Below, piece by piece: positions 16,914-23,758 of a stretch of DNA of 39,495 bases. A program made the position numbers and the translations under genes. The notes below the pieces were generated by a model. It was not told the origin of the DNA and ran no database searches. It was given only the letters and a program-made list of their open reading frames with translations. Source of the DNA: a virus; IMG/VR virus record IMGVR_UViG_3300023223_000155, positions 1-39,495 of that record. One strand, written 5' to 3'. Numbering within the stretch: position 1 is the first letter of the stretch; every line of letters begins with the position of its first letter.

Positions 16914-17543
16914 TTATTTCTCCTCATAAGGGAAACGAACATAAAATTCTAAGCCCGCTTTAATGTCTTTGTAATACCTGTAAACAGTCTGGTATGGTAT
17001 GCCTGTTTCTTTAGCGATGGCGGCTGGCCCTTTGGCCTTATCGTTTTCATAGATATCAAGCATTTTTTTCCACAGCACACCGTCAAATGTCAGGCCCCGA
17101 GTTTTATATGTTCCTCGTTCCTTTGCCGCCTTGATACCCTCCGAAGTTCTTTCTGCCGTCAGGTCGCGTTCTAACTGGGCCAGGATTGCCATCATACCGA
17201 AAATCATAGTCCCCATAGGGGTGGTGGTGTCAAAGGGCTGTGTGAGGCTCTTAAAGTTAACGCCCCGGTCTTTTAATTCATTGATTGTATTGATGAGGCC
17301 AATGGCAGACCGTCCCAATCTATCCAGCTTCCAAACAACAAGACAATCACCTTCCCGGCAACGCTTTAAAGCAAGGTCATATTGGGGACGTTTCTTTGCC
17401 AGGGATGATATTTTTTCTTGAAAGATAAAGTCATCCTTAATACCGGCCTCCTGCAAAGCAAATATCTGTAAGTCAAGGTTTTGATCTTCCCTGGAGGTCC
17501 GAGCATACCCGATTAATTCACCTTTAAATTCTTCGCCAAACAC
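16914..17543 (-). CDS. Small serine recombinase (resolvase/invertase family)
   Basis: The 209-residue protein has a GTG start (17543) with RBS AAAAAGGAA. It has the catalytic serine in IGYARTSREDQNLDLQ (S17), the arginine motif VVWKLDRLGRSA (69-80), the long E-helix region MGTMIFGMMAILAQLERDLT, and a C-terminal HTH (AAIAKETGIPYQTVYRYY). It belongs to the Hin/Gin/Tn3-resolvase type that acts at short sites; it lacks the large C-terminal domain of phage integrases. It is the first gene of the minus-strand block, 140 bp from a perfect 21-bp inverted repeat that could be its target. Confidence 0.9.
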   Translation of the reverse strand: MFGEEFKGELIGYARTSREDQNLDLQIFALQEAGIKDDFIFQEKISSLAKKRPQYDLALKRCREGDCLVVWKLDRLGRSAIGLINTINELKDRGVNFKSLTQPFDTTTPMGTMIFGMMAILAQLERDLTAERTSEGIKAAKERGTYKTRGLTFDGVLWKKMLDIYENDKAKGPAAIAKETGIPYQTVYRYYKDIKAGLEFYVRFPYEEK

Positions 17544-17589
17544 TATTTAAATTCCTTTTTGTATGTTTTGAAATCAACTTATTAACTGA

Positions 17590-17618
17590 AGTGTATATTA
17601 TTAGTGTTGACAAATCAA
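17590..17618 (-). promoter_or_regulatory. Possible minus-strand promoter for recombinase block
   Basis: Read on the minus strand: TTGATT (17613-17618), 17-bp spacer, TACACT (17590-17595), ending about 47 nt before the recombinase GTG. The -10 is weak. It overlaps the strong plus-strand promoter, so the two would compete. Confidence 0.35.
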
Positions 17619-17634
17619 ATGTTTTCTTTATATT
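17607..17634 (+). promoter_or_regulatory. Strong early promoter for plus-strand block
   Basis: A perfect TTGACA (17607-17612), 16-bp spacer and TATATT (17629-17634) lie in an AT-rich divergent region. The start would be near 17641, so the RNA begins just before the first ACGCCC leader (17665) and the 21-bp stem element. It is the only strong promoter seen for the whole plus-strand block. Confidence 0.75.
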
Positions 17635-17685
17635 AGTGTAAGAGAGTTGAATTAAACAACGAAGACGCCCAGAGGGAATAATAGG

Positions 17686-17801
17686 AGTGTCCTTAGTAGG
17701 TATGTGCTTGTTGTGAGATTGGGAATTTTCTAGGGTTCGAATCCCTACGCAGGATACAGGGTGCTGTATGCAGACACGGCCACATACCTACTAAGGACAC
17801 T
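17686..17801 (+). ncRNA. Structured leader element: 21-bp perfect stem enclosing a tRNA-like T-arm
   Basis: The arms 17686-17706 and 17781-17801 are perfect reverse complements (21 bp) and enclose 74 nt. Inside are a canonical T-arm, TAGGG-TTCGAAT-CCCTA (17731-17747), and a second hairpin ATACAG-GGTG-CTGTAT (17754-17769). No D-arm or anticodon arm is visible, and the strand after the T-arm (CGCAGGA) has no complementary 5' acceptor. It occupies a gene-like slot between the leader motifs at 17665 and 17812, with no ORF. It could be a processed RNA, a tRNA fragment used as an attachment core, or an invertible segment for the neighbouring recombinase. Confidence 0.6.
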
Positions 17802-17844
17802 TTAAACTTAAACGCCCAGTTGATGGGCAAAGTAAGGAAAGACT

Positions 17845-18159
17845 ATGAACAAGGCGAGATTAGAACAGATGCAGGCTCACTTTGACGAGGGCGGACATCT
17901 AGGAAGACCAATCGTTGCTGAGCTGTTGGATTCATTGGGTAAGCAGGAAGCAAAGACAATGTATTCACTTAGATTAAGCAAGAAGGGTGAAGCGGCTATG
18001 AATAAGAAGTTCATTAATAATGGTGAAGCCCACAAGCTTTTAGATTTAATTAATGCTGAATTTCAAAGCGACCCGATGAGCGTCCAGTGTTTTGATTTAA
18101 GGATTGTTGAGCGTGTTAAGAAATGCGTTGAAATTGAAAATGATGTGAGCTTTTTATAG
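17845..18159 (+). CDS. Hypothetical helical protein, 104 aa
   Basis: First protein gene of the plus-strand block. Leader motif at 17812 and RBS AAGGAAAG precede the ATG. The product is helical (MNKARLEQMQAHFDEGGHLG; INAEFQSDPMSVQCFDLRIV) without a recognised domain. Its early position suggests host takeover or regulation. Confidence 0.65.
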   Translation: MNKARLEQMQAHFDEGGHLGRPIVAELLDSLGKQEAKTMYSLRLSKKGEAAMNKKFINNGEAHKLLDLINAEFQSDPMSVQCFDLRIVERVKKCVEIENDVSFL

Positions 18160-18187
18160 TTCGCACCAACGCCCGAAAGGCAAGACG

Positions 18188-18430
18188 ATGAAGAAAATGA
18201 ATATAAAGTTTGATAAAAATATTCCACTGCCGTCAGCAAAAGCTAAATATCCTCTTGGTGAAATGGAGGTGGGGGATAGTTTTGCTGTGCCTTACGATAA
18301 TGCACCTCAATTAAGGTCTGCGGCTACTTCTGCGCCGAAGATGAACCCTTCATGTCAAGGCATGAAATTTAGCACTCGCACGTTAAAAGAAAAAGGTGAA
18401 AAAGTTCTGCGTGTCTGGAGAATTGAATAA
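18188..18430 (+). CDS. Conserved small phage protein (DUF7303-like), 80 aa
   Basis: The segment YPLGEMEVGDSFAVP then LRSAATSAPK and KFSTRTLKEKGEKVLRVWRI matches the pattern 'YPxxxMEVGDSFxVP...RSAA...FxTR...VRVWRI' of a widespread small phage protein family. Leader motif at 18169 and a short AAAGGCAAGACG RBS region precede it. Biochemical role unknown. Confidence 0.75.
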   Translation: MKKMNIKFDKNIPLPSAKAKYPLGEMEVGDSFAVPYDNAPQLRSAATSAPKMNPSCQGMKFSTRTLKEKGEKVLRVWRIE

Positions 18431-18458
18431 TCAACTTTAACGCCCGGAAGGAGAGACG

Positions 18459-18965
18459 ATGAATTATACTACCTATGAACTTGAAGGTGAGACTAAGGAT
18501 AAGGTTCTTTCTATCTTTAATGAAAGAGACGCAAACCAAGATAAACGCAAGCAATACTGCAAGGATATTGGAGCGCTAACAAATGGCGTTGTTTGCCAAG
18601 GCCCGGACGTTGTCGGGTTCATTTTTGAGAAACAAGAGAATAAGCCTGACCGTTGGGTATGGGATGGCAGGGTATTCCAAAAAGGCGGGTCGGTAGAATA
18701 TGCAAGACCACAACGGCGTAGCAAGGCAGATAAAGCGCAATGGGTTAAAATCGGTGAGCTTAAGGATAGTACAACAGAAAAATTAAACAAACTTTTTTAC
18801 AATGATGCATGGGGATTCAGCCCTGGGAATGCCTTTAAAAGATTTGGAGTTGGTGCATTTACTAGAGAGGGACGCGCATTTGCAGAGATAGCAACGGAAG
18901 CGGAAACGCTATCGGGAATGAAGGAAATTCTTAGAAGCGAATACGATAACTTTAAAACAACTTAA
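18459..18965 (+). CDS. Hypothetical protein, 168 aa
   Basis: Leader at 18440 merges with the RBS (CGGAAGGAGAGACG). The N-terminus is charged and helical, the middle has DRWVWDGRVFQKGGSVEYAR, and the C-terminus is AFAEIATEAETLSGMKEIL. No family was recognised. Confidence 0.6.
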   Translation: MNYTTYELEGETKDKVLSIFNERDANQDKRKQYCKDIGALTNGVVCQGPDVVGFIFEKQENKPDRWVWDGRVFQKGGSVEYARPQRRSKADKAQWVKIGELKDSTTEKLNKLFYNDAWGFSPGNAFKRFGVGAFTREGRAFAEIATEAETLSGMKEILRSEYDNFKTT

Positions 18966-18993
18966 ACGCCCGATTGGGCAGAGGACCAAGACG

Positions 18994-19176
18994 ATGGAAT
19001 TTTTTATACCAATGTGGATGCTAATGACACCGGTAGTATTATTTGGCGGGTTCTTAGTTTTTGCTGGCATTGCTGAATTATGGTTTTGGTGGGATGAAAG
19101 TTTTGATGCCGCACAGATATTCCGCCTCATATGCTTAATATTTGGTATATTTTTAATAATTTGGGCTGTGATTTAA
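18994..19176 (+). CDS. Small two-TM membrane protein, 60 aa
   Basis: Two hydrophobic segments (about 3-24 MWMLMTPVVLFGGFLVFAGI and 42-59 IFRLICLIFGIFLIIWAV) are separated by a short loop with Trp/Glu/Asp. A full leader hairpin lies at 18966. Unknown role. Confidence 0.65.
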   Translation: MEFFIPMWMLMTPVVLFGGFLVFAGIAELWFWWDESFDAAQIFRLICLIFGIFLIIWAVI

Positions 19177-19224
19177 TTTAATTTTTAACGCCAGATTTGG
19201 CATAACACAAAGAAGGACTAAAAT

Positions 19225-19365
19225 ATGGATACCCCAGAAGGATACAGTGAAGGTTATGTTGCCGCACTTGAAACGATTAAGAGTATGATTGACCAAGGGG
19301 CTGATATTTCACTCGTAAAAATGGCCGTAGAAGAGGCAATCGAAAGTGAACAGGCAGAGGATTAA
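19225..19365 (+). CDS. Small acidic protein, 46 aa
   Basis: ATG at 19225 after the compensated leader hairpin (19188-19202) and RBS AGAAGGACT. The product MDTPEGYSEGYVAALETIKS ends in an acidic helix AVEEAIESEQAED. No family was recognised. Confidence 0.6.
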   Translation: MDTPEGYSEGYVAALETIKSMIDQGADISLVKMAVEEAIESEQAED

Positions 19366-19372
19366 ATTGTCG

Positions 19373-19398
19373 GGGTTGGTCGGTATTCCGACTGACCC
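19373..19398 (+). promoter_or_regulatory. 11-bp intergenic hairpin replacing the usual leader
   Basis: GGGTTGGTCGG-TATT-CCGACTGACCC forms an 11-pair stem (two G-T pairs). It is not followed by a T-run. The gene at 19454 is the only one in this stretch without an ACGCCC motif, so this hairpin may take its place. Confidence 0.55.
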
Positions 19399-19453
19399 TA
19401 ACAACTAACACAACGAACCGTCAATCCTGACAGACCAACAACGGAGAAAAGAT

Positions 19454-19657
19454 ATGTTAGACAATAATGAAGTTGAAAAAAGAATTGATAAGTGCGCTGA
19501 GGGCAATTGGAAAGTTGCAAATCTATTGCGCGATGTTGGACCATTTTTTACATGGAACGAAACACTGCAAAATCAGCTTTTGAAAATCATAAAAGTAAAA
19601 AGAGTGTCTTGTTCAAACACCGGTGCTGTTCACTTTGAAGAACTGGTCACTGAATAA
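19454..19657 (+). CDS. Hypothetical protein, 67 aa
   Basis: RBS CGGAGAAAAGAT precedes the ATG. The product MLDNNEVEKRIDKCAEGNWK then VANLLRDVGPFFTWNETLQN is helical. The leader differs from its neighbours (hairpin 19373-19398). No family was recognised. Confidence 0.6.
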   Translation: MLDNNEVEKRIDKCAEGNWKVANLLRDVGPFFTWNETLQNQLLKIIKVKRVSCSNTGAVHFEELVTE

Positions 19658-19693
19658 TCAACGAAGACGCCCGATTGGGCAAAGGATAAGACG

Positions 19694-19765
19694 ATGATAG
19701 CGGCTATTTTTGTGTTTATTTGTGGTTTTGCAGCAGGTTATTTTTGGTGCAAAATGTGGAATTAA
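19694..19765 (+). CDS. Single-TM micro-protein, 23 aa
   Basis: MIAAIFVFICGFAAGYFWCK ends MWN. It has a full leader hairpin (19667-19680) and RBS AAGGATAAGACG just as the larger genes, and its stop precedes the next leader. This spacing is the best evidence that it is a real gene. Membrane location inferred. Confidence 0.6.
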   Translation: MIAAIFVFICGFAAGYFWCKMWN

Positions 19766-19773
19766 TTTTAAAC

Positions 19774-19848
19774 GCCCCCGTAACCAGCCGATCGAGGTCG
19801 AAGTCTGGTGATTGGTTAAATGTAGGTTCGATTCCTACCGGGGGGGCA
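19774..19848 (+). tRNA. tRNA-like element (non-canonical) in leader position
   Basis: This tRNA-sized stretch begins with the shared leader bases (ACGCCC at 19772) extended to GCCCCCG. It has exactly the canonical 41 nt between acceptor strand and T-stem, then a perfect T-arm GTAGG-TTCGATT-CCTAC (19822-19838) and CGGGGGGGC-A. The acceptor pairs GCCCCC/GGGGGC with two extra G on the 3' side. Instead of D and anticodon arms there is one long arm (ACCAG/CTGGT, or TAACCA/TGGTTA). No anticodon can be assigned. It precedes the gene at 19864. It is either a degenerate tRNA, a tRNA-like RNA, or a tRNA with an assembly error in the G-run. Confidence 0.45.
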
Positions 19849-19863
19849 TAGAAGGAAAATATT

Positions 19864-20091
19864 ATGAAGATAAAAGCATCAATGAAAAAAGTAAACGAAG
19901 CACTTAACAAAATAAGTGATGTCGGATCGGTTACTGTAAATGGATCAGGCGGGAAGGTTTCGGTCAAAGGCGTTGACGCCAATTTCTCTTTTGACGAAAG
20001 TTCAGAGGAATTGACAATAACAATTACTGACAAACCCTGGCTAGTTTCAGAAAGCTTTGTTGAGGATGAAATCAGGAAATTTTTTAATTAA
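19864..20091 (+). CDS. Hypothetical protein, 75 aa
   Basis: RBS AGAAGGAAAA follows the tRNA-like element directly. The protein has a Lys-rich helical N-terminus (MKIKASMKKVNEALNKISDV) and beta-rich GSVTVNGSGGKVSVKGVDAN, then an acidic DESSEELTITITD. The fold resembles a small alpha+beta domain; no family was recognised. Confidence 0.6.
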   Translation: MKIKASMKKVNEALNKISDVGSVTVNGSGGKVSVKGVDANFSFDESSEELTITITDKPWLVSESFVEDEIRKFFN

Positions 20092-20112
20092 CACAGACGC
20101 CTGGAAACGAAC

Positions 20113-20460
20113 ATGAGTAATACATTTTTTCCTTTTACAGTCCGTAATCCTTGGGGATTTAGGGATGTATTTTTAGACCGCAAGCCAAAAGGTTTAACAT
20201 TTTATGAATTTGATGTGGTAGTCCGCAGTAAAACATCCGTAACTTTTGTTGTTTATGATATGAGGGATAATTTTTATGGTGGGCGCGGGAAAGAAATTAA
20301 AAAGATACCCGCAAACAATATATCAGCTAAAGAAATCAGGCCCATGATAATTTCACACTTAGAAGGCAAAGCGTATGAAATTCAATTTGAAAGACAAGAG
20401 AAAAAAGAAGAAATTGAAAGACGTGAAATTATCAAGGAATTAAGAAAACAATTTTTATAA
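20113..20460 (+). CDS. Hypothetical protein, 115 aa
   Basis: Leader half-motif at 20097. The N-terminal 70 residues are beta-rich (FPFTVRNPWGFRDVFLDRKP; TFVVYDMRDNFYGG) and the last 35 form a charged helix (ERQEKKEEIERREIIKELRK). No family was recognised. Confidence 0.6.
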   Translation: MSNTFFPFTVRNPWGFRDVFLDRKPKGLTFYEFDVVVRSKTSVTFVVYDMRDNFYGGRGKEIKKIPANNISAKEIRPMIISHLEGKAYEIQFERQEKKEEIERREIIKELRKQFL

Positions 20461-20481
20461 CACTAACGCCCGGAGATTGAT

Positions 20482-20634
20482 ATGACACAAGGATTTATGA
20501 TTATACTGTCAACGCTTGCTTTGATTGCAGCGGCAACGGCTGGGGTTATGGATAACGAAAGTGCAATGTGGGCGCTTGGAATTATATCTAGCGTATGGTC
20601 GGCGGCTAGTATTATATATGGAAAATTAAACTAA
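20482..20634 (+). CDS. Two-TM membrane peptide, 50 aa
   Basis: ATG at 20482 after leader ACGCCCGGAGATTGAT, where the RBS GGAG is part of the leader. Hydrophobic segments GFMIILSTLALIAAATAGV and MWALGIISSVWSAASIIYG flank a short DNES loop. No family was recognised. Confidence 0.6.
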   Translation: MTQGFMIILSTLALIAAATAGVMDNESAMWALGIISSVWSAASIIYGKLN

Positions 20635-20667
20635 ACACAAACGCCCATTATTGGGTAGGAGAATAAG

Positions 20668-20892
20668 ATGTCATACAAAGATGTTAGAATTAATAACGAA
20701 TGGCATGATATCATTTCATGCGACAAATGCGGAGATGAAATAGGTGTGTTTGGGCAATACGAAGATACAAAACATATTGAAGGATTAAATCATTTGGTAG
20801 GTGGAAAATCAGATCATGAATGTCAAAGATGCAAAGGCTCTAGGCATCAAAGATATGATGATCATGTAGACCCATTAAGAGCATATCATTAA
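20668..20892 (+). CDS. Zinc-binding small protein, 74 aa
   Basis: CDKCGDEIGV and HECQRCKGSRHQR form two CxxC knuckles about 34 residues apart, so a single zinc-ribbon is likely. Leader hairpin at 20641 and RBS AGGAGAATAAG precede the ATG. Role unknown. Confidence 0.65.
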   Translation: MSYKDVRINNEWHDIISCDKCGDEIGVFGQYEDTKHIEGLNHLVGGKSDHECQRCKGSRHQRYDDHVDPLRAYH

Positions 20893-20932
20893 TTACACAC
20901 AGACGCCCGTTACGGGCTGGGAGAATAAAATA

Positions 20933-21283
20933 GTGAAGGATTTACTAGGAAATGAATTTCAGGATTTTAGGGTGGTTCACCCTACGTTAGGCGCAGTGTG
21001 TGCAACAGGGGGGACTTTTATGGTCACCCGTTCCGGATACTCCACTTTAGCCGTGATTATAGGAATAGGTGAAGGGTGGGAGCACATATCGGTGTCTTTG
21101 CAGAAAAGGGTGCCCGTCTGGGAAGAAATGGAATTTATAAAACGGCTGTTCTTTAAGGACGACGAGACAGCAATGCAGCTCCACGTGCCGCCCAAAGACC
21201 ATATAAATATGCACCCTTTTGTGCTCCATATGTGGCGACCTGTTGGGGATAATATACCTCTCCCCCCGGACTATATGGTATAA
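20933..21283 (+). CDS. Conserved phage protein (DUF7694-like), 116 aa
   Basis: The GTG start (20933) follows a 5-bp leader hairpin GCCCG-TTA-CGGGC and RBS GGGAGAATAAAATA. The motif order GWEHISVSLQKRVPVWEEME, FIKRLFFKDDETAMQLHVPP and NMHPFVLHMWRPV is that of a widespread phage protein family with invariant WEHxSVS, CPTWEEM-like and HPxxLHxWRP blocks. Biochemical role unknown. Confidence 0.8.
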   Translation: MKDLLGNEFQDFRVVHPTLGAVCATGGTFMVTRSGYSTLAVIIGIGEGWEHISVSLQKRVPVWEEMEFIKRLFFKDDETAMQLHVPPKDHINMHPFVLHMWRPVGDNIPLPPDYMV

Positions 21284-21327
21284 TTTTTAAACGCCTAAAT
21301 GATTGGGCACAACAACGGAGAACTAAA

Positions 21328-21573
21328 ATGATGAGAGCTAAAATGAAGATCGACAGTATTACCCATTACGATAATACTGAGCAGGTGGATCTTAATATGT
21401 CGGCTGTCTGTAAGAACAAGTACGAGGGTGAGGGGTTAGATGAAAATAACACATTCGCCAAGTTCACACCTAATGCCAATTTAACAATAAGCATCTGCAA
21501 TCCTGCACTTATGGACAAGTTTAGTGAAGGTCAGACATTTTATGTTGATTTCACTGAGACTGAAAAAGGGTAA
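21328..21573 (+). CDS. Conserved phage protein, 81 aa
   Basis: The pattern GEGLDENNTFAKFTPNANLT then ISICNPALMDKFSEGQTFYV is well known from small phage proteins of unknown role ('NTFSKFTPxAxLxxxIxNPALxGxFxxGxxFYVDF'). Leader at 21291 with 6-bp stem; RBS ACGGAGAACT. It is followed by an intrinsic terminator. Confidence 0.75.
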   Translation: MMRAKMKIDSITHYDNTEQVDLNMSAVCKNKYEGEGLDENNTFAKFTPNANLTISICNPALMDKFSEGQTFYVDFTETEKG

Positions 21574-21585
21574 ATCACATTAACG

Positions 21586-21613
21586 GGGGTGGTTTAGTCA
21601 CCATCCCATTTTT
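21586..21613 (+). terminator. Rho-independent terminator inside plus-strand block
   Basis: GGGGTGGT (21586-21593), 6-nt loop TTAGTC, ACCATCCC (21600-21607), then ATTTTT. Eight pairs with one G-T. It would reduce transcription of the genes beyond 21.6 kb unless antiterminated; the next leader motif starts at 21622. Confidence 0.65.
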
Positions 21614-21642
21614 GTATTTAAACGCCCAATGAAAGACAGGAT

Positions 21643-21876
21643 ATGTTCAAACCAATACACAATGAATATACAAACACAGTTTTAGGTGCGCCCAAAGATT
21701 GGGGCATTAAAAAGGATGGCGAGTGTATCGGACTTCCAGTACATCGGGATGAAGAATGTTATTACTCATGGTGGGCAGTCGATTGGAAAAATAGGCTTAA
21801 AATATTATTTGGAAAGCCAATACGATTAACGATCTTTTCGGTCAGTCATCCACCAGTATCATTAGATACAGAATAA
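21643..21876 (+). CDS. Hypothetical protein, 77 aa
   Basis: The product MFKPIHNEYTNTVLGAPKDW then IGLPVHRDEECYYSWWAVDW reads like small conserved phage proteins with 'LGxPxDWD...CxxLPV...W..' order. Leader half-motif at 21622 and RBS GACAGGAT. It is the first gene after the internal terminator. Confidence 0.65.
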   Translation: MFKPIHNEYTNTVLGAPKDWGIKKDGECIGLPVHRDEECYYSWWAVDWKNRLKILFGKPIRLTIFSVSHPPVSLDTE

Positions 21877-21907
21877 TTTTAAACGCCCGATTGGGCAGGA
21901 GAAGACA

Positions 21908-22099
21908 ATGTTCACTATAAAAAATAAACCAGCTACACTTTCACAAGTTTTGTTTTTTGTGATTGGGAATATTATAGCTTTACCGCTTTGCTTTTGGCTT
22001 CTCTCCCTTGCTGGCACGGCCCTAACGGGGGATGTTTTAGGCGGCTATGCCTTTGCTTTATTTGTAGCTGCAATGGGTTCAATAGTGAGTTTGAATTAA
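21908..22099 (+). CDS. Two-TM membrane protein, 63 aa
   Basis: Hydrophobic segments TLSQVLFFVIGNIIALPLCF and GGYAFALFVAAMGSIVSL flank a short polar loop. Full leader hairpin at 21883; RBS AGGAGAAGAC. Role unknown. Confidence 0.65.
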   Translation: MFTIKNKPATLSQVLFFVIGNIIALPLCFWLLSLAGTALTGDVLGGYAFALFVAAMGSIVSLN

Positions 22100-22133
22100 T
22101 TTCAACGAAGACGCCCATAGAAAGGCACACACA

Positions 22134-22595
22134 ATGGAAAGAACAAAATATCCTCTTAATCATGAGTGGCATGTATCCATTAATAGACACAGTGATGCAA
22201 TGCGTAAAGAAGGTAAAGATTGGCCCAAATTTATGTATGCCGCAAAAGATATGGCTGATGAGGTTCCAAGGCTTGCAATGATCTTTAAGCAGGAGCGTGA
22301 AGGCACGCTCACAAAGACACATAAGCAATGTTCTATGCAGAATGAAGTGCCAGTAATTGACAATCATTTAACGTGTGCAATGGGCAAAAAATGTGCATCT
22401 TGTCCCATACTAAAATCACTTGAAAAAACAGACCGTGCAAGTGGTGAAGATATTGATTTAATCAAGGCATGGACTTGCGCATCTCATATAATATCAAGCG
22501 GAATGCACTATGATTGCGGATTCGTGCAATCGGTTGATGATCAAATATATTGGGACAATGTCCATGCTAGCCTAGCAATGGCAGATCAAGATTAA
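22134..22595 (+). CDS. Cys-rich protein, 153 aa
   Basis: The N-terminal half is helical and charged. The C-terminal half has CSMQNEVPVIDNHLTC, then AMGKKCASCPILKSL, WTCASHI and YDCGF. The clustered cysteines with CxxCP suggest a zinc or Fe-S site. Leader at 22111. No family was recognised. Confidence 0.6.
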   Translation: MERTKYPLNHEWHVSINRHSDAMRKEGKDWPKFMYAAKDMADEVPRLAMIFKQEREGTLTKTHKQCSMQNEVPVIDNHLTCAMGKKCASCPILKSLEKTDRASGEDIDLIKAWTCASHIISSGMHYDCGFVQSVDDQIYWDNVHASLAMADQD

Positions 22596-22628
22596 TTTTA
22601 AACGCCCGATTGGGCATGGAGAAATACA

Positions 22629-22907
22629 ATGGCACTATTAGAGGATTTAAAGGTCGCTGCAGGTGATGAACAATACCCAAAATCACTAACCCTGAGAGCT
22701 GTTGCTGAGATTAAAGAATTACGCACAAGCTTAGGTATTGCGCTTGTGGCATTAGAGCAGGCAGACGTATTGCTAATCGCCCTAAGAGATGATGATGATA
22801 AGCGTAGAGATATGTTAAGGGAATTAAACGGGGAATTAAATCTAACTGAACCAAAAGTCCGGCAAGGTATAAAGGTGGCTAAAGATACCTTGAGATTCGG
22901 ATTATAA
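22629..22907 (+). CDS. Helical protein, 92 aa
   Basis: The product is nearly all helix, with heptad-like Leu/Ala (LRAVAEIKELRTSLGIALVA) and an acidic turn RDDDDKRRD. Full leader hairpin at 22602 and RBS TGGAGAAATAC. No family was recognised. Confidence 0.6.
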   Translation: MALLEDLKVAAGDEQYPKSLTLRAVAEIKELRTSLGIALVALEQADVLLIALRDDDDKRRDMLRELNGELNLTEPKVRQGIKVAKDTLRFGL

Positions 22908-22948
22908 AATAGTCACACTAACGCCCATATAACAGGCAAGGAAAAAAG

Positions 22949-23728
22949 ATGGATGCTCTAGGAGACAGAATGAAATTTTATGAACGGTTTGAAACAGGAC
23001 AAGTATTTATGCCAATGATGCCTATACTTGCTCGTGTTGATGGTCGTGCGTTTCATACCTTTTGTAAGGGGCTTAATCGCCCATATGACGAGCGTTTAAT
23101 AGGTCTTATGACTGATGTAACTAGATTTCTAGTAGAGCAAACAAACGCTACTGTAGGCTACACACAAAGTGATGAAATAACCTTGGCGTGGTCAAATCAA
23201 GAGGCAAAATCTGAAATGTTTTTTGGAGGGAAGAAATTTAAGGTTATATCCATTGTTTCTTCTTTAACTACCCTTATGTTCAATCACTTGCTCGAAGAAT
23301 GGCTACCAGAAAAAGCAGATAAGTTGCCTATCTTTGATTGCCGAGTATGGCAGGTGCCTAATCTAGATGAGGCGTGTAATGTATTTGTATGGCGTGAACA
23401 GGATGCTGTTAGAAACAGTCTTCAAATGGCCGCACAGAGCATTTATTCCCATAATGAATTGCACAATAAGAATGCCGCAAATTTGCATGATATGTTGATG
23501 GAAAAAGGCATTAATTGGAATGATTATCCATCCCGATTTAAACGCGGAACATATATTAGGAGAACTGAAAAAACTTCTGTTATTCATCCTGCTGAACTTG
23601 CCAACTTGCCAGAAAAACACAATGCCAGGATTAACCCAGATATGAAATTTACTAGAAATGTTATTGAAGAAATAGATTTGAAACCATTGTCAAAATTTGA
23701 AGACAAAGTATCAATCTTATTTTCATAA
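22949..23728 (+). CDS. Thg1-like protein: tRNA 5'-end 3'-5' nucleotidyltransferase family
   Basis: The 259-residue protein is a full Thg1/TLP catalytic domain. LGDRMKFYERFETGQ starts as in Thg1. ARVDGRAFHTFCKGLNRPYD carries the first metal aspartate (D31). VGYTQSDEITLAW carries the second (D74, with E75). FDCRVWQVPNLDEACNVFVW, then REQDAVRNSLQM, replaces the HINNLYN motif of eukaryotic Thg1, as in bacterial and archaeal Thg1-like proteins, and GINWNDYPSRFKRGTYI completes the fold. Known members add G-1 to tRNA-His or repair truncated tRNA 5' ends by templated 3'-5' addition. Leader at 22921. The same block encodes two tRNA-like elements, which makes them candidate substrates (inference). Confidence 0.9.
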   Translation: MDALGDRMKFYERFETGQVFMPMMPILARVDGRAFHTFCKGLNRPYDERLIGLMTDVTRFLVEQTNATVGYTQSDEITLAWSNQEAKSEMFFGGKKFKVISIVSSLTTLMFNHLLEEWLPEKADKLPIFDCRVWQVPNLDEACNVFVWREQDAVRNSLQMAAQSIYSHNELHNKNAANLHDMLMEKGINWNDYPSRFKRGTYIRRTEKTSVIHPAELANLPEKHNARINPDMKFTRNVIEEIDLKPLSKFEDKVSILFS

Positions 23729-23758
23729 CACTAACGCCCGGTTGGGCAGGAGAGAGAC

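What the first reader, a model, noticed from the sequence alone, without database searches (positions are those of the whole stretch)
22949..23728. Phage-encoded Thg1-like 3'-5' nucleotidyltransferase
Seen: RVDGRAFHTF, YTQSDEI and the FKRG block with both metal aspartates intact and the TLP-type VRNSLQM in place of HINNLYN. Known: this family extends or repairs tRNA 5' ends in the 3'-5' direction. Inference: the phage restores tRNAs damaged by host anticodon or tRNA nucleases, or acts on its own tRNA-like RNAs, either of which would be a new phage role.
Basis: partly seen in the sequence, partly recalled or inferred. Interest (0 to 1): 0.85.

Follow-up and report, generated by a model that had tools for sequence, protein, structure and literature searches.

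The report
Phage Thg1-like reverse RNA polymerase
A small virus of bacteria carries an apparently intact enzyme of a known family that lengthens RNA at its "wrong" (5') end, probably to mend damaged tRNAs; such genes are already known in large phages, but one in a 39.5-kb phage without tRNA genes is unusual.

Summary
ORF 22949-23728 (+) encodes a 259-aa Thg1-like protein (TLP) with all the motifs named. PF04446, PHROG 4717, PDB sequence searches and a confident AlphaFold model (pLDDT 90) all agree, and the closest solved structure is Bacillus thuringiensis TLP.

It is not new to phages. At least 125 named phage records and 567 IMG/VR stretches encode relatives, and the RNA-repair and anti-defence idea was published for phage 201phi2-1 in 2010 and for jumbo phages in 2021.

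What is unusual is the carrier. It is a ~39.5-kb P22-like podovirus with no recognisable tRNA gene or RNA ligase. None of 38 portal-related records has Thg1, and no listed named carrier is under 88 kb.

New tests here narrow the role. None of 299 Pseudomonadota genomes encodes the family. tRNAs of Thg1 phages have normal 5' acceptor ends, and most of their few tRNA-His genes already encode G-1. In relatives, Thg1 lies near RNA ligase genes more often than chance. This favours 5'-end repair of host tRNAs over His-tRNA maturation.

Two T-arm-bearing RNA elements in the same early operon are real sequence features. No evidence ties them to the enzyme. Activity is untested.

The parts
22949..23728 (+). 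Thg1-like protein (TLP), 259 aa, predicted 3'-5' nucleotidyltransferase
23033..23062 (+). RVDGRAFHTF motif (R29, metal ligand D31)
   Evidence: sequence; invariant columns
23159..23179 (+). YTQSDEI motif (S74, metal ligands D75/E76)
   Evidence: sequence; invariant columns
23408..23428 (+). VRNSLQM, TLP-type sequence in place of eukaryotic HINNLYN
   Evidence: sequence; DATKNSI consensus; KNSIS in BtTLP
23537..23548 (+). FKRG block near the end of the catalytic core
   Evidence: sequence
22920..22948 (+). leader AACGCCCATATAACAGGC plus ribosome-binding site upstream of the TLP start, one copy of the repeated early leader
17686..17801 (+). early-operon leader RNA: 21-nt perfect inverted repeat around a 74-nt loop with a tRNA-Ser-like T-arm (about 17731-17747); possible but unproven TLP substrate
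19774..19848 (+). degenerate tRNA-like element: acceptor stem and T-arm at tRNA spacing, no recognisable anticodon arm; possible but unproven TLP substrate

Best explanation
The gene encodes an apparently active Thg1-like protein, expressed from the phage early operon. It most likely activates the 5'-phosphate of 5'-truncated host tRNAs and adds Watson-Crick-templated nucleotides in the 3'-5' direction, using the 3' acceptor strand as template, so that tRNA pools stay usable during infection. Shown: family, fold, intact catalytic residues, TLP type, absence from sampled Pseudomonadota genomes, link to RNA ligase genes in phage relatives. Inferred: catalytic activity, the substrate, and that the damage is a host defence.
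For: Family, fold and conserved residues. Bacterial and archaeal TLPs tested so far prefer repair of 5'-truncated tRNAs and do not need the His anticodon (PMC6471195). The family is absent from 299 of 299 Pseudomonadota genomes sampled but common in phages, so in that phylum it is largely phage-borne. 29 of 50 viral Thg1 records carry an RNA ligase, which lies within 3 kb of Thg1 in 8 records against 1.7 expected, P = 1e-4. It is directly adjacent in L003 and L008, which belong to the supported clade of the window protein (99/93). RlaP, an RNA-repair nucleotidyltransferase, is adjacent in L010.
Against: No biochemistry. This phage has no PF09414 RNA ligase and no repair gene was recognised among the ORFs scanned, so the context evidence comes from relatives with mostly much larger genomes. 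A bacterial defence nuclease that removes 5' acceptor nucleotides is not known to me; the sources read name anticodon-loop and 3'-CCA attack (PMC12851939). The ligase-proximity test ignores relatedness among records, and those records may be fragments.
Confidence: 0.52

Rival explanations
1. The TLP acts on the phage's own tRNA-like RNAs in the same early operon, for example filling or extending the 5' end left after RNase III or RNase P cuts 17686-17801 or 19774-19848.
For: The window's only two T-arm-like motifs are intergenic in this operon, 0.165 expected in the whole window, and their best short matches in 185 gammaproteobacterial genomes, in the seven loci checked, fall at T-arms of real tRNA genes. 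Archaeal TLP binds acceptor stem plus T-arm and not the anticodon (PMC6471195).
Against: A phage sharing early-operon sequence (G093) has a comparable inverted-repeat RNA, there with a 23S rRNA fragment, but no Thg1. The elements were not searched for in all Thg1 relatives. An acceptor-plus-T-arm core such as 19774 is expected 0.57 times per window by a loose scan.
Confidence: 0.13
2. It adds G-1 to tRNA-His (host or phage), the classical Thg1 role.
For: Database names; the CBB genome paper suggests Thg1 assists phage tRNA-His (PMC5259590). TLPs can add a templated G-1 opposite C73 in vitro (PMC6471195).
Against: The window has no tRNA gene. Four of five plausible tRNA-His genes in Thg1 phages, CBB included, already encode G at -1. 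Most bacteria encode G-1, and the eukaryotic HINNLYN motif that reads the His anticodon is absent.
Confidence: 0.06
3. It edits 5' mismatches of phage-encoded tRNAs, as DdiTLP3 does in slime-mould mitochondria.
For: 37 of 50 viral Thg1 records carry tRNA genes.
Against: Acceptor mismatches at positions 1-3 occur in 17 of 341 tRNAs of Thg1 phages, many of them initiator-type tRNAs, against 5 of 86 in five tRNA-bearing phages without Thg1. The window has no tRNA gene.
Confidence: 0.03
4. It has left RNA work for nucleotide signalling (palm domain related to GGDEF and Cas10/mCpol), for example making or depleting a nucleotide used by host defence.
For: Shared palm fold with GGDEF and CRISPR polymerases (PMC2904730, PMC12657218).
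Against: Every confident fold and sequence match is Thg1/TLP; Cas10 and cyclase chains appear only at E > 0.005. R29, S74, K98 and R132, which match Thg1 residues used for 5' activation and nucleotidyl transfer, are kept.
Confidence: 0.04
5. It is 5'-end RNA repair of non-tRNA substrates (rRNA, mRNA or guide RNAs).
For: DdiTLP4 uses non-tRNA RNAs (PMC6471195).
Against: No sequence evidence for any such substrate.
Confidence: 0.12

Closest known systems
Bacillus thuringiensis TLP (PDB 4kgk, 4kgm)
   Same: Best sequence and structure match; same motifs, KNS-type sequence in place of HINNLYN, same active-site carboxylates.
   Different: Only about 30% identical over the fold; BtTLP is bacterial and biochemically tested, this one is phage-borne and untested.
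PHROG 4717, phage 'tRNA-His guanylyltransferase' (201phi2-1, CBB, GAP32, Bcep and Caulobacter phages)
   Same: Clear family member, about 27-55% identical to viral relatives.
   Different: The named carriers listed are 88 kb or larger, and many relatives carry tRNAs and RNA ligases; this carrier is about 39.5 kb with neither.
Eukaryotic Thg1 (yeast, Candida, human)
   Same: Palm fold and catalytic residues.
   Different: No HINNLYN anticodon-reading motif; 19-26% identity in the fold alignments.
Predicted jumbo-phage RNA-repair sets (RNA ligase, RlaP, Thg1, CCA enzyme; PMC7824862)
   Same: Thg1 of relatives clusters with RNA ligase and RlaP genes.
   Different: No PF09414 ligase in this phage; at most a one-enzyme version.

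Membership tests
Thg1-like protein (TLP) | PF04446 catalytic domain above the curated cut-off | tested here: met
   100 bits against 29.2
Thg1-like protein (TLP) | Two-metal carboxylates and the 5'-activation and transfer residues | tested here: met
   R29, D31, S74, D75, E76, K98, R132 invariant; yeast K44 is R44 here
Thg1-like protein (TLP) | Lacks the eukaryotic HINNLYN motif | tested here: met
   DAVRNSLQM at that place; KNSIS in BtTLP
Thg1-like protein (TLP) | TLP/Thg1 fold | tested here: met
   pLDDT 90.4; 32 of 32 confident PDB hits are Thg1/TLP, BtTLP best
Thg1-like protein (TLP) | Templated 3'-5' addition, preference for 5'-truncated tRNA | not testable with these tools
   needs an enzyme assay
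bona fide tRNA-His guanylyltransferase (Thg1) | HINNLYN motif | tested here: not met
bona fide tRNA-His guanylyltransferase (Thg1) | Cognate tRNA-His lacking encoded G-1 | tested here: inconclusive
   no tRNA in the window and host unknown; in relatives G-1 is encoded in 4 of 5
phage multi-enzyme RNA-repair set | RNA ligase in the same genome | tested here: not met
   no PF09414 match in the window; 29 of 50 relatives have it

The most novel reading that the evidence does not exclude
A small phage uses reverse (3'-5') RNA synthesis on its own RNAs: T-arm-bearing elements in the early operon are cut out of the transcript, leaving recessed 5'-phosphate ends beside 3' overhangs that the TLP fills in, which matures or stabilises these RNAs or controls the early operon.
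Probability: 0.08. Interest if true: 0.85.

Novelty: new member of a known kind. Interest (0 to 1): 0.4.

Why it matters
What phage Thg1-like proteins do has been an open question since at least 2010, and no experimental role was found in the literature searched. A 39.5-kb phage that carries the gene without tRNA genes or a recognised RNA ligase is a far simpler genetic setting than a 300-kb jumbo phage for asking whether reverse RNA polymerisation mends tRNAs in infected cells. The tests here also weaken the two textbook roles, tRNA-His maturation and 5' editing of phage tRNAs, for the phage family.

Tried and rejected
tRNA genes in the window: none by ARAGORN or at Rfam gathering; only a sub-threshold tRNA hit at 19774. 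Close DNA relatives of the phage among named phages: none. The 17686 inverted repeat elsewhere: three pattern hits, none with the hairpin. The early-leader pattern led to G093, G094 and G091, which share the leader but lack Thg1. Fragment of a jumbo genome: rejected, because the P22-like structural genes run off one end of the window and on at the other in the same order as in G001. tRNA-His maturation and 5' editing of phage tRNAs: weakened. Link between Thg1 and the long inverted repeats: weakened, because G093 has the repeat without Thg1. A tree against cellular Thg1 was not made; plasmid-borne relatives reach at most 42% identity. Host identity was not found; portal relatives point to gammaproteobacteria.

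Full report
Observation. ORF 22949-23728 (+) is a clean 259-aa reading frame with its own leader and ribosome-binding site. It matches PF04446 at 1.3e-28, PHROG 4717 at 5.6e-84 and B. thuringiensis TLP (PDB 4kgk/4kgm) at 8.8e-39. In an alignment with 21 viral relatives, R29, D31, S74, D75, E76, K98 and R132 are invariant. The yeast Thg1 alignment places R27, D29, S75, D76/E77, K96 and R133 there; yeast K44 is R44 here. The HINNLYN motif is replaced by DAVRNSLQM, as in TLPs. The AlphaFold model (pLDDT 90.4, pTM 0.85) finds only Thg1/TLP chains among its 32 PDB hits at E <= 0.001, with BtTLP best.

The phage. The window is one IMG/VR record of 39,495 bases. Portal, terminase, head and head-closure genes are of the P22 kind, and Erf-like, DnaD-like and NinB/Orf-like genes are present. 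Structural genes run off one end of the window and continue at the other in the order seen in relative G001, so the record looks like a circularly permuted and nearly complete genome (inference). It has no tRNA gene and no PF09414 RNA ligase. None of 38 records that encode a related portal protein has PF04446; many of these are fragments.

How ordinary the gene is. 125 named phage records and 567 viral-contig stretches encode relatives. Of the named records printed, none is shorter than 88 kb. Published work already names the phage gene and proposes RNA repair against host defences (PMC2904730; PMC7824862), tRNA modification (PMC3601020) or help for tRNA-His (PMC5259590). No experiment on a phage TLP was found in the library searched.

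Tests of the role. (a) Host role: 0 of 299 Pseudomonadota genomes have PF04446, so a host housekeeping function is unlikely if the host is in that phylum. (b) Phage tRNA editing: 341 tRNAs in 20 stretches from Thg1 phages show 17 with a mismatch at acceptor positions 1-3, many of them initiator-type tRNAs; five tRNA-bearing phages without Thg1 show 5 of 86. There is no excess. (c) tRNA-His: four of five plausible tRNA-His genes in Thg1 phages already have G before position 1, CBB among them; the numbers are small. (d) Context: 29 of 50 Thg1 records have an RNA ligase, within 3 kb of Thg1 in 8 records against 1.7 expected when Thg1 is placed at random (P = 1e-4). L003 and L008, with the ligase directly adjacent, fall with the window protein in a clade with 99/93 support. 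RlaP is adjacent in L010. Relatedness among records was not corrected for.

Mechanism. TLPs studied so far activate a 5'-phosphate and add Watson-Crick-templated nucleotides, preferring 5'-truncated tRNAs and ignoring the anticodon (PMC6471195). The best-supported reading is therefore 5'-end repair of host tRNAs during infection. It cannot rejoin anticodon cuts, and the sources read place bacterial defence attack on tRNA at the anticodon loop or the 3' CCA tail (PMC12851939), so the source of 5' damage is unknown. This is the weakest step.

tRNA-like elements. 17686-17801 is the longest perfect inverted repeat of the window (21 nt) and encloses a T-arm. 19774-19846 has acceptor stem and T-arm at tRNA spacing but no clear anticodon arm. 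These hold the only two T-arm motifs of the window, with 0.165 expected. In 185 gammaproteobacterial genomes their best short matches lie at T-arms of tRNA-Ser, and of tRNA-Gln and tRNA-Arg, genes in the seven loci checked. They are probably tRNA-derived sequences in the same operon as the TLP. A phage sharing part of this early region (G093) has a similar hairpin that encloses a 23S rRNA fragment and has no Thg1, so hairpin and enzyme are not obligatorily linked.

Verdict. The gene is a new member of a known phage enzyme family in an unusually small carrier. The role is probably 5' tRNA repair but unproven.

Noticed in passing
window 17811-23733 (+); also G093, G094, G091: Most early ORFs are preceded by a repeated leader [A/G]ACGCCCG...(GGGC) with ribosome-binding site and ATG; AACGCC occurs 45 times in the window against 14 expected. 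The same leader design occurs in three otherwise different phages. It recalls mycobacteriophage start-associated sequences (own knowledge); function unknown.
   Followed up: partly
L167:10698-10850 (phage record G093): An 18-nt inverted repeat in an early intergenic region encloses 117 nt that contain a fragment resembling bacterial 23S rRNA domain I (71-78% identity over 54-91 nt). It looks like a phage-borne rRNA piece inside a processing-stem-like hairpin.
   Followed up: partly
window 17560-17660: Sigma-70-like promoter (TTGACA, 16 nt, TATATT) just before the 17686 hairpin, read by eye; it would put the hairpin near the start of the early transcript.
   Followed up: no
window 16914-17543 (-): DNA invertase/serine recombinase gene (phrog_125, 9.7e-62) beside the early promoter; no dedicated phage integrase was recognised among the ORFs scanned.
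   Followed up: no
NZ_CP126028.1 29482-30231 (67-kb Bradyrhizobium plasmid record): A Thg1-like protein 38.5% identical over the whole length sits on a 67-kb plasmid record, possibly a phage-plasmid.
   Followed up: no
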